The translations under genes and the position numbers were made by a program. The notes under the pieces are model-generated. The model had not been told where the DNA came from. It was given only the letters and a program-made list of their open reading frames with translations, and searched no databases. From NCBI RefSeq assembly GCF_000423905.1, contig NZ_AUIW01000002.1, forward strand, positions 62,001 to 126,000: 64,000 bases of DNA. Direction: 5' to 3'. Source of the DNA: Thermus antranikianii DSM 12462. GTDB lineage: Bacteria > Deinococcota > Deinococci > Deinococcales > Thermaceae. Position 1 is the stretch's first letter. Each line of letters opens with the position of its first letter. Below, one piece after another: positions 39,453 through 41,538 of the stretch.

Positions 39453-40214
39453 TCAAAACCTAGGCGGCCGTTTCTCGAAGAAGGCCCGGATGCCCTCCTT
39501 TAGGTCCCCGGTTTCCCGGACCCAGGCGTTGGCCAAGGCCGCCAGGCGGAAGCCGTCCTCGAGGCCCATCCCCGGCAAGGCCAGGAGAAGCTCCTTGGTG
39601 AGGCGCAAGGAGGTGGGGGCGTTCTTGGCCAACTCCTCCGCAAGAGCCAGGGCTTCCTCCAGGGCTTTACCGGGCCTGGCGATGCGGTTGGCCAGGCCCA
39701 ACGCCTTGGCCTCCTCCGCCCCCACCAGGCGGCCCGTGAGGAGGAGGTCCTTGGCCACCTTTTCTCCCACGGCCCGCACCAGGATCACGGAAACCAAAGC
39801 GGCCACAAAGCCGATCTTCACCTCGGTGTAGCCCAGCTTGGCCTCCTGGTCCATGACCAAAAGGTCGCAGGCGGTGGCCAAACCTGCCCCGCCCGCCACT
39901 GCCGGCCCGTTCACCGCGGCCACCGTGGGTTTGGGGAAGGTGTAGAGGCGGTGGAAGAGGCGCATGAGGGAAAGGGAATGGCGGTAGTTCTCCTCGGCTC
40001 CGAGCTCCGTCACCTTCTCCAAAAAGGCCAGGTCGGCTCCGGCACTGAAGGCGCTTCCCCTGCCCGAAAGGACCAGGACCCGGGCCTCGGGGTCCTTCTC
40101 CGCCTCCTCGAGGGCCTGCAAAAGCCCCTCCACCATCTCGGGGGAAAGGGGGTTTCTCCGCTCTGGGTCGTTGAGGAAAACCCGATAGATCCGACCTCTC
40201 TCCACCTGGACCAT
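39453..40214 (-). CDS. Enoyl-CoA hydratase/isomerase (crotonase) family protein
   Basis: 253 residues with the crotonase oxyanion segments GRGSAFSAGADLAFLEK and NGPAVAGGAGLATACDLLV, and a catalytic-type glutamate in KLGYTEVKIGFVAAL. The pattern is close to methylglutaconyl-CoA hydratase/AUH-like enzymes of leucine breakdown, but substrate assignment within this superfamily by eye is unsafe. It is divergent from infC, with the -10 box of one overlapping the -35 region of the other. Confidence 0.8.
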   Translation of the reverse strand: MVQVERGRIYRVFLNDPERRNPLSPEMVEGLLQALEEAEKDPEARVLVLSGRGSAFSAGADLAFLEKVTELGAEENYRHSLSLMRLFHRLYTFPKPTVAAVNGPAVAGGAGLATACDLLVMDQEAKLGYTEVKIGFVAALVSVILVRAVGEKVAKDLLLTGRLVGAEEAKALGLANRIARPGKALEEALALAEELAKNAPTSLRLTKELLLALPGMGLEDGFRLAALANAWVRETGDLKEGIRAFFEKRPPRF

Positions 40215-40220
40215 GCCCCC

Positions 40221-40226
40221 ATTGTA
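40221..40226 (-). promoter_or_regulatory. -10 box of the crotonase gene, leaderless spacing
   Basis: TACAAT on the minus strand, 6 bases before ATG 40214. It overlaps the weak -35 (TTGTAG) of the divergent infC promoter. Confidence 0.5.
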
Positions 40227-40251
40227 GGCGCTGGGGTTTTCTTGCTACACT
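40222..40251 (+). promoter_or_regulatory. Candidate infC promoter
   Basis: -35 TTGTAG (40222-40227, weak), 18-bp spacer, -10 TACACT (40246-40251). Predicted start near 40258 leaves a leader of about 48 bases containing AGCCCGCAAG, the palindrome GCCCGCGGGC and a GAGGAGGTGG ribosome-binding site. Confidence 0.45.
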
Positions 40252-40305
40252 CCCCTTAGCCCGCAAGCCATGCAGGGAGAGCCCGCGGGCGAGGAGGTGG
40301 TGTAG

Positions 40306-40824
40306 ATAAAGGAGTACCTGGTTAACGAGCGCATCCGCGTGCGGCAGGTTCGGGTGATTGGACCGGACGGTCAACAACTGGGCATCATGGACACCCGGGA
40401 AGCCTTGCGCCTGGCGGAGGAGCAGGACCTGGACCTGGTGCTGGTGGGTCCCACCGCCGATCCTCCCGTGGCCCGCATCATGGACTACTCCAAGTGGCGT
40501 TATGAGCAGCAGGTGGCGGAGAAGGAGGCCCGCAAAAAGGCCAAGCGCACCGAGGTGAAGTCCATCAAGTTCCGGGTCAAGATCGACGACCACGACTATC
40601 AGACCAAGCTGAACCATATCAAGCGCTTCCTGGCCGAAGGCCACAAGGTCAAGGTCACCATCATGTTCCGGGGACGGGAGATGTCCCATCCTGAGCTGGG
40701 GGAGAAGCTTCTTGAGCGGGTGGCCGAGGACCTGAAGGGCCTGGCCGTGGTGGAGATGAAGCCCGAGCTGCTGGGCCGGGATATGAACATGCTTCTGGCG
40801 CCAGCCAAGGTGTCGGCCCCCTAA
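40306..40824 (+). CDS. infC: Translation initiation factor IF-3, with ATA start codon
   Basis: 172 residues. The conserved N-terminus KEYLVNERIRVRQVRVIGPDG begins directly after an ATA at 40306; the codon before it (40303-40305) is an in-frame TAG, so no upstream start exists. GAGGAGGTGG lies 5-7 bases upstream, ideal for ATA, whereas GTG 40339 would delete 11 conserved residues. Rare AUU-type starts are known for infC in E. coli, where IF-3 rejects them and so represses itself. Both IF-3 domains are complete (MDYSKWRYEQQ; KVTIMFRGREMSHPELG). First gene of infC-rpmI-rplT. Confidence 0.96.
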   Translation: MKEYLVNERIRVRQVRVIGPDGQQLGIMDTREALRLAEEQDLDLVLVGPTADPPVARIMDYSKWRYEQQVAEKEARKKAKRTEVKSIKFRVKIDDHDYQTKLNHIKRFLAEGHKVKVTIMFRGREMSHPELGEKLLERVAEDLKGLAVVEMKPELLGRDMNMLLAPAKVSAP

Positions 40825-40832
40825 GGGGTAAG

Positions 40833-40882
40833 ATGGCGCAAGCCTAGGTCAGCCCCATGGGGGCTAAATGGCGTAAGCCTAG
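40833..40882 (+). repeat. Direct repeat pair between infC and rpmI
   Basis: ATGGCGCAAGCCTAG (40833-40847) and ATGGCGTAAGCCTAG (40868-40882) differ at one base. Between them AGCCCC and GGGGCT (40851-40865) can form a 6-bp hairpin. The second copy touches the -35 box of the rpmI promoter. Confidence 0.6.
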
Positions 40883-40908
40883 ACCTTTTCGCCCCCCTTT
40901 GGTATAGT
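40880..40908 (+). promoter_or_regulatory. Internal promoter of rpmI-rplT
   Basis: -35 TAGACC (40880-40885), 17-bp spacer, -10 TATAGT (40903-40908). The predicted leader (about 40915-40972) holds GGGCT/AGCCC and CCCC/GGGG stems and the motif AGCCCGCAAG also found in the infC leader. A CTTCC segment could pair with GGAAG of the rpmI ribosome-binding site. Confidence 0.6.
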
Positions 40909-40972
40909 GTGAGGGCTTTGGGGAGCCCGCAAGACCCCGGTTGGGGCGCTTCCCAGGGCTTGGAGGAAGGGT

Positions 40973-41170
40973 ATGCCGAAGATGAAGACCCACAAGGGCG
41001 CCAAGAAGCGGGTAAAGGTGACCGCTTCGGGCAAGGTGATGGCCATGAAGACGGGAAAGCGGCACCTCAACTGGCACAAGTCCGGGAAGACCATCCGTCA
41101 GAAGGGGCGGAAGTTCGCCCTGGCCCAGGCGGAGGCGGAGCGTGTAAAGCTCCTCCTGCCCTACGAGTGA
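40973..41170 (+). CDS. rpmI: Ribosomal protein L35
   Basis: 65 residues, very basic, starting [20 protein letters not shown], the conserved L35 N-terminus. GGAGGAAGGGT precedes the ATG. It sits in the classic order infC-rpmI-rplT, with its own promoter in the 148-base gap after infC. L35 belongs to the large subunit. Confidence 0.97.
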
Positions 41171-41181
41171 GGAGGTAGGGA

Positions 41182-41538
41182 ATGCCGCGCGCCAAAACGG
41201 GTGTCGTTCGCCGCAGGAGGCACAAGAAGATCCTCAAGCTGGCCAAGGGATATTGGGGCCTCCGCTCCAAGAGCTTCCGCAAGGCCCGGGAAACCCTCTT
41301 CGCTGCGGGCAACTATGCTTACGCCCACCGCAAGCGCAAGAAGCGGGATTTCCGCAGGCTCTGGATCGTGCGCATCAATGCCGCCTGCCGCCAGCACGGC
41401 CTAAACTACTCCAGCTTTATCCACGGCTTGAAGAAGGCGGGGGTGGAGCTGGACCGCAAGGTGCTGGCCGATTTAGCGGTGCGGGAACCCCAGGTCTTTG
41501 CTGAGCTGGTGGAGAAGGCCAAGGCGGCCCGCGCCTAA
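41182..41538 (+). CDS. rplT: Ribosomal protein L20
   Basis: 118 residues: a long basic N-terminal tail ([20 protein letters not shown]) and the globular domain ([31 protein letters not shown]). L20 is an early assembly protein of the 50S subunit and in several bacteria represses its own operon by binding the leader. Only 11 bases separate it from rpmI. GAGGAGGTAGGG is the ribosome-binding site. Confidence 0.97.

What the first reader, a model, noticed from the sequence alone, without database searches (positions are those of the whole stretch)
40303..40341. infC must start at ATA, one codon after an in-frame TAG
The conserved IF-3 N-terminus (KEYLVNERIR) runs up to an ATA at 40306, and the codon directly before it is TAG. 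GAGGAGGTGG is ideally spaced for the ATA. The next usable starts (CTG 40318, GTG 40339) would delete conserved residues. Rare AUU/AUA starts let IF-3 repress its own synthesis in E. coli; this is the same logic with a rarer codon, in a genome where ATA is an uncommon codon.
Basis: partly seen in the sequence, partly recalled or inferred. Interest (0 to 1): 0.75.

Follow-up and report, generated by a model that had tools for sequence, protein, structure and literature searches.

The report
IF-3 gene infC starts at AUA
In this Thermus genome the gene for translation initiation factor IF-3 really does begin at the weak start codon AUA, and it does so in every Thermus genome examined, but weak AUA/AUC/AUU starts are the normal state of this gene across bacteria and an AUA start of the same gene has already been mapped by experiment in Staphylococcus aureus.

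Summary
Observation confirmed. infC (TIGR00168, 216 bits) is open from ATA 40306, directly after in-frame TAG 40303. The 8-base Shine-Dalgarno match AGGAGGTG (40292-40299) is set for the ATA. It is not a sequencing error: ATA is at this position in all 27 Thermus genomes held, each with a stop (TAG, once TAA) just before it. True Ile codons of Thermus infC are nearly always ATC. The solved T. thermophilus IF-3 begins M-KEYLTNERIR, i.e. at this codon. Across 85 Deinococcota infC genes the called start is ATA 62, ATC 12, ATT 7, GTA 4; ATG, GTG or TTG never occur. Of 77 infC genes from other phyla, 71 have ATC, ATA or ATT. This avoidance of canonical starts fits the textbook model: IF-3 discriminates against the weak codon and so limits its own synthesis. 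That regulation was not tested here.

The finding is sound but ordinary in kind. 'A rarer codon' is wrong in context: AUA is the usual infC start in this phylum, and an AUA infC start was mapped in S. aureus (PMC13009471). The upstream TAG is lineage-specific and not needed. Extra: the Thermus leader has an invariant GC stem directly before the Shine-Dalgarno.

The parts
40222..40251 (+). probable infC promoter: -35-like TTGTAG (40222-40227) and extended -10 TGC-TACACT (40243-40251)
   Evidence: TTGTAG/TTGTAC and TGCTANACT are conserved in the Thermus loci; the generic sigma-70 scan did not flag it, so this is inference from conservation
40258..40290 (+). leader stem-loop: AGCCCGC (40258-40264) pairing with GCGGGC (40284-40289), variable loop, directly upstream of the Shine-Dalgarno; 40258 is also the predicted transcript start
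   Evidence: six invariant G-C pairs, loop variable in length and sequence in 19 distinct Thermus leaders; positions -21 to -16 invariant in 25 of 25. No covariation, because the stem never varies
40292..40299 (+). Shine-Dalgarno AGGAGGTG, 8 complementary bases
   Evidence: GGAGGTG invariant in 25 of 25 Thermus
40303..40305 (+). in-frame stop TAG immediately before the start codon
   Evidence: TAG in 24 and TAA in 1 of 25 Thermus; a stop here in 4 of 60 other Deinococcota
40306..40308 (+). infC start codon AUA
   Evidence: T. thermophilus IF-3 in PDB 5lmn begins M-KEYLTNERIR
40306..40824 (+). infC, translation initiation factor IF-3, 172 aa
   Evidence: TIGR00168, 216 bits
40973..41170 (+). 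rpmI, ribosomal protein L35
   Evidence: TIGR00001, 77 bits
41182..41538 (+). rplT, ribosomal protein L20
   Evidence: TIGR01032, 167 bits

Best explanation
infC is translated from AUA at 40306 with initiator fMet-tRNA, placed there by a strong 8-base Shine-Dalgarno. AUA mispairs with the CAU anticodon at the third base, so the 30S initiation complex is of the type that IF-3 rejects. When IF-3 is plentiful, infC initiation is suppressed; when it is scarce, initiation rises: the homeostatic loop known from E. coli infC (AUU). Shown here: position, Shine-Dalgarno, genus-wide invariance, absence of any canonical start in the sampled phylum. Inferred from E. coli and Streptomyces: IF-3 sensitivity and feedback.
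For: Stop directly upstream and ATA in all 27 Thermus genomes. Shine-Dalgarno spacing 8. PDB T. thermophilus IF-3 starts M-KEYLTNERIR, and its residues 2-28 equal those after the ATA of L026. 85 Deinococcota infC: ATA 62, ATC 12, ATT 7, GTA 4, no NTG; 7 codon changes on the tree, none to NTG; third base never G although G is 41% of third bases in the infC body. Outside the phylum 71 of 77 are ATC/ATA/ATT. E. coli control reads ATT at the annotated start. Literature: infC is ATT in E. coli and ATC in Streptomyces, and IF3 autoregulates (PMC5472188); ATT in B. subtilis (PMC6097659); AUA in S. aureus mapped with retapamulin ribosome profiling (PMC13009471).
Against: No Thermus expression, peptide or IF-3 titration data were available. 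The PDB chain follows a database sequence and is not proven N-terminal sequencing. Invariance of the third base alone is weak (54 of 155 third positions in Thermus infC are invariant). Only six third-base changes are inferred on the tree, so absence of G among them is suggestive (about 0.6^6 = 0.05), not decisive. The start caller was given both canonical and weak codons but needed a Shine-Dalgarno, so unusual starts without one would be missed. A few Solirubrobacterales infC seem to use ATG/GTG with a longer N-terminus, so the weak start is not universal.
Confidence: 0.88

Rival explanations
1. The AUA only lowers IF-3 output to a fixed level (a weak constitutive start) and there is no feedback in Thermus.
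For: Weak starts reduce expression to roughly 10-30% of AUG in S. aureus ccpN, citZ and cvfC1 reporters, genes that are not IF-3 itself (PMC13009471). Feedback was not tested here.
Against: The weak start is tied to infC itself across phyla, which the feedback model predicts; AUA, AUC, AUU and GUA interchange while NTG never appears.
Confidence: 0.1
2. Translation starts downstream at CTG 40318 or GTG 40339, and the conserved residues before it are not made.
For: GTG is a common start codon in this GC-rich genome; GTG 40339 opens the ORF that a standard finder lists.
Against: No Shine-Dalgarno for GTG 40339; CTG too close to AAAGGAG. The residues before it (KEYL-NERIR) are conserved to IF-3 of other phyla and are in the PDB sequences. 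The residue at 40339 is Ala, not Val, in most other Thermus.
Confidence: 0.02
3. Ribosomes reach the AUA by termination and re-initiation: from the 11-codon ORF ATG 40270-TAG 40305 in this genome, or from the NTG-TAG start-stop pair at 40300-40305.
For: The stop abuts the AUA. Codon -2 is ATG or GTG in 24 of 25 Thermus.
Against: The 11-codon ORF exists only here: most Thermus have another in-frame TAG at codon -5 (18 of 25) and many lack the ATG. The NTG is about 2 nt from the Shine-Dalgarno, too close for initiation, and is GTC in L019. Most relatives have no stop before the start (56 of 60).
Confidence: 0.03
4. Sequencing or assembly error of an ATG.
For: The window is from a draft genome of 33 contigs.
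Against: ATA in 27 of 27 independent Thermus genomes and in 37 of 60 other Deinococcota.
Confidence: 0.002

Closest known systems
Escherichia coli infC (AUU start, IF-3 autoregulation)
   Same: orthologous gene, weak start codon with third-base mismatch, Shine-Dalgarno upstream, infC-rpmI order
   Different: AUA instead of AUU; upstream gene is a divergent enoyl-CoA hydratase-like gene, not thrS; in-frame stop directly before the start
Staphylococcus aureus infC (AUA start, mapped by ribosome profiling, PMC13009471)
   Same: same gene, same start codon, extended Shine-Dalgarno
   Different: different phylum; experimentally mapped there, comparative evidence only here
Streptomyces infC (ATC) and sigR (GTC), IF-3-repressed starts (PMC5472188)
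   Same: weak start; for sigR behind the same AGGAGGTG Shine-Dalgarno
   Different: ATC/GTC codons; for sigR the target is another gene

Membership tests
IF-3-autoregulated infC with weak start codon | gene encodes IF-3 | tested here: met
   TIGR00168, 216 bits, cut-off 60
IF-3-autoregulated infC with weak start codon | start codon is not AUG, GUG or UUG | tested here: met
   ATA directly after in-frame TAG, conserved in 27 Thermus genomes
IF-3-autoregulated infC with weak start codon | Shine-Dalgarno correctly placed for the weak codon | tested here: met
   AGGAGGTG, 8 nt spacing
IF-3-autoregulated infC with weak start codon | weak start kept by evolution, canonical starts avoided | tested here: met
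   0 of 85 Deinococcota infC with NTG start
IF-3-autoregulated infC with weak start codon | linked to rpmI and rplT | tested here: met
   L35 and L20 follow, though rpmI has its own promoter-like site
IF-3-autoregulated infC with weak start codon | expression falls with excess IF-3 and rises with IF-3 shortage, lost when the codon is AUG | not testable with these tools
   needs reporter experiments

The most novel reading that the evidence does not exclude
In Thermus the infC leader adds a second control layer: the invariant GC stem at the predicted 5' end, stacked directly on the Shine-Dalgarno with the AUA behind it, works as one element (mRNA stability, or temperature- or protein-dependent access to the Shine-Dalgarno) on top of IF-3 discrimination.
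Probability: 0.12. Interest if true: 0.45.

Novelty: new member of a known kind. Interest (0 to 1): 0.27.

Why it matters
It shows that all Deinococcota sampled here keep a weak infC start and never revert to AUG, GUG or UUG, which is what IF-3 self-limitation predicts. It also means that gene finders restricted to ATG/GTG/TTG will place the infC start wrongly in such genomes (one search lists GTG 40339). It does not open a new mechanism.

Tried and rejected
Sequencing error: rejected by 27 Thermus genomes. Downstream starts: rejected (no Shine-Dalgarno, conserved residues lost, 40339 not conserved as GTG). Re-initiation from the 11-codon ORF at 40270: rejected as general, not conserved. Role for the in-frame TAG: not supported outside Thermus. 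Shine-Dalgarno sequestration by codons 4-6 (AGGUG with UACCU): pairs survive through G-U, but the amino acids Tyr-Leu force this and there is no double change, so no support. Rfam scan of 40150-41250: only a chance match. Similarity of the rpmI leader to 23S rRNA by 7-mers: uninformative. No paper stating the Thermus infC start codon was found in the held library.

Full report
What is there. The window is G000:C2:62001-126000 of a 2.16 Mb draft genome of the genus Thermus; the nearest named record is T. scotoductus DSM 8553, 97% identical in IF-3. The infC frame reads GAG GAG GTG GTG TAG ATA AAG GAG TAC CTG GTT AAC GAG CGC ATC CGC GTG. The TAG at 40303-40305 closes the frame, so any infC start must be at or after ATA 40306. 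The protein is IF-3 (TIGR00168, 216 bits), followed by rpmI (L35) and rplT (L20). Upstream lies a divergent enoyl-CoA hydratase-like gene, so infC has its own short leader.

Start codon. AGGAGGTG at 40292-40299 gives eight complementary bases to the 16S tail (the tail sequence is from general knowledge; the 16S genes of this draft are incomplete), with 8 nt between GGAGG and the ATA. Neither CTG 40318 nor GTG 40339 has a fitting Shine-Dalgarno, and the residue at 40339 is Ala in most other Thermus.

Within the genus. All 27 Thermus genomes held have ATA at this position and a stop directly before it. In the 25 intact genes used for counting, ATA is 25 of 25, while at the eight positions that are Ile in all of them ATA is 5 of 200. 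The T. thermophilus IF-3 in PDB 5lmn starts M-KEYLTNERIRAKQVRVVGPDGKQLGIM, identical after the Met to the protein read from the ATA of L026. So the databases already place the start here.

Within the phylum. In 85 Deinococcota infC genes from five families the codon behind the Shine-Dalgarno is ATA 62, ATC 12, ATT 7, GTA 4. ATG, GTG and TTG do not occur. Parsimony on a FastTree protein tree gives ATA at the root and seven changes, none to NTG. In 60 non-Thermus genes only four have a stop at codon -1, close to the 3 in 64 expected by chance. The TAG is thus a Thermus trait that helps to prove the start but is not part of the general mechanism.

Outside the phylum. Of 77 infC loci (mostly Actinomycetota and Negativicutes), 43 are ATC, 15 ATA, 13 ATT, one GTC, five without a fitting Shine-Dalgarno; four of those five are Solirubrobacterales-like genes that read as ATG or GTG starts with a longer N-terminus. 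The E. coli control reads ATT at the annotated start.

How it works. The most likely mechanism is the established one: a strong Shine-Dalgarno brings 30S subunits to a codon whose third base does not pair with the initiator anticodon, IF-3 destabilises such complexes, and IF-3 thereby limits its own synthesis (E. coli; summarised in PMC5472188). For Thermus the comparative pattern supports this; the feedback itself is inferred.

Prior art. S. aureus infC starts with AUA, seen by retapamulin ribosome profiling, and the authors propose the same autoregulation (PMC13009471). B. subtilis has ATT (PMC6097659), Streptomyces ATC (PMC5472188), L. monocytogenes ATT (PMC13068326). Hence the finding is a new member of a known kind.

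Leader. In Thermus, AGCCCGC...GCGGGC forms an invariant six- to seven-pair stem around a loop that varies freely in sequence and length, ending one or two bases before the Shine-Dalgarno. A conserved extended -10 (TGCTANACT) predicts transcription to begin at about 40258, i.e. with the stem at the very 5' end of the mRNA. The stem never varies, so covariation cannot test it; its function (mRNA stability or access to the Shine-Dalgarno) is open.

Noticed in passing
window 40824-40975 (infC-rpmI gap) and the same gap in other Thermus loci: A second promoter-like site (TAGACC/TATAGT, 40880-40908) and a conserved leader fold GGGGAGC..CCAAG.CCCC..GGGG.CGCTTCCC just before the rpmI Shine-Dalgarno, with changes on both sides of four pairs. 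Candidate L20 (or L35) autoregulatory site; no Rfam match.
   Followed up: partly
L132, L133, L134, L135 (four Deinococcota genomes of one family): The infC start position carries GTA, preceded by GGAGGTG at the usual spacing in three of four: an apparent GUA start, rarer than AUH.
   Followed up: partly
L046 (Actinomycetota KatS3mg013): infC appears to start at GTC behind AGGAGGTGAT, like the IF-3-repressed sigR of Streptomyces.
   Followed up: no
L048, L094, L102, L105 (Solirubrobacterales and relatives): infC appears to start at ATG or GTG with a longer N-terminus and no Shine-Dalgarno: a lineage that left the weak start.
   Followed up: no
G016 (L026, L029) and G024 (L027, L028): infC is split between two frames in these two Thermus assemblies, probably an indel error, since the gene is essential in other bacteria.
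   Followed up: no
window 40270-40305: In this genome a T-to-G difference from most Thermus joins an 11-codon ORF (MQGEPAGEEVV) to the TAG before the AUA; it is not conserved.
   Followed up: yes
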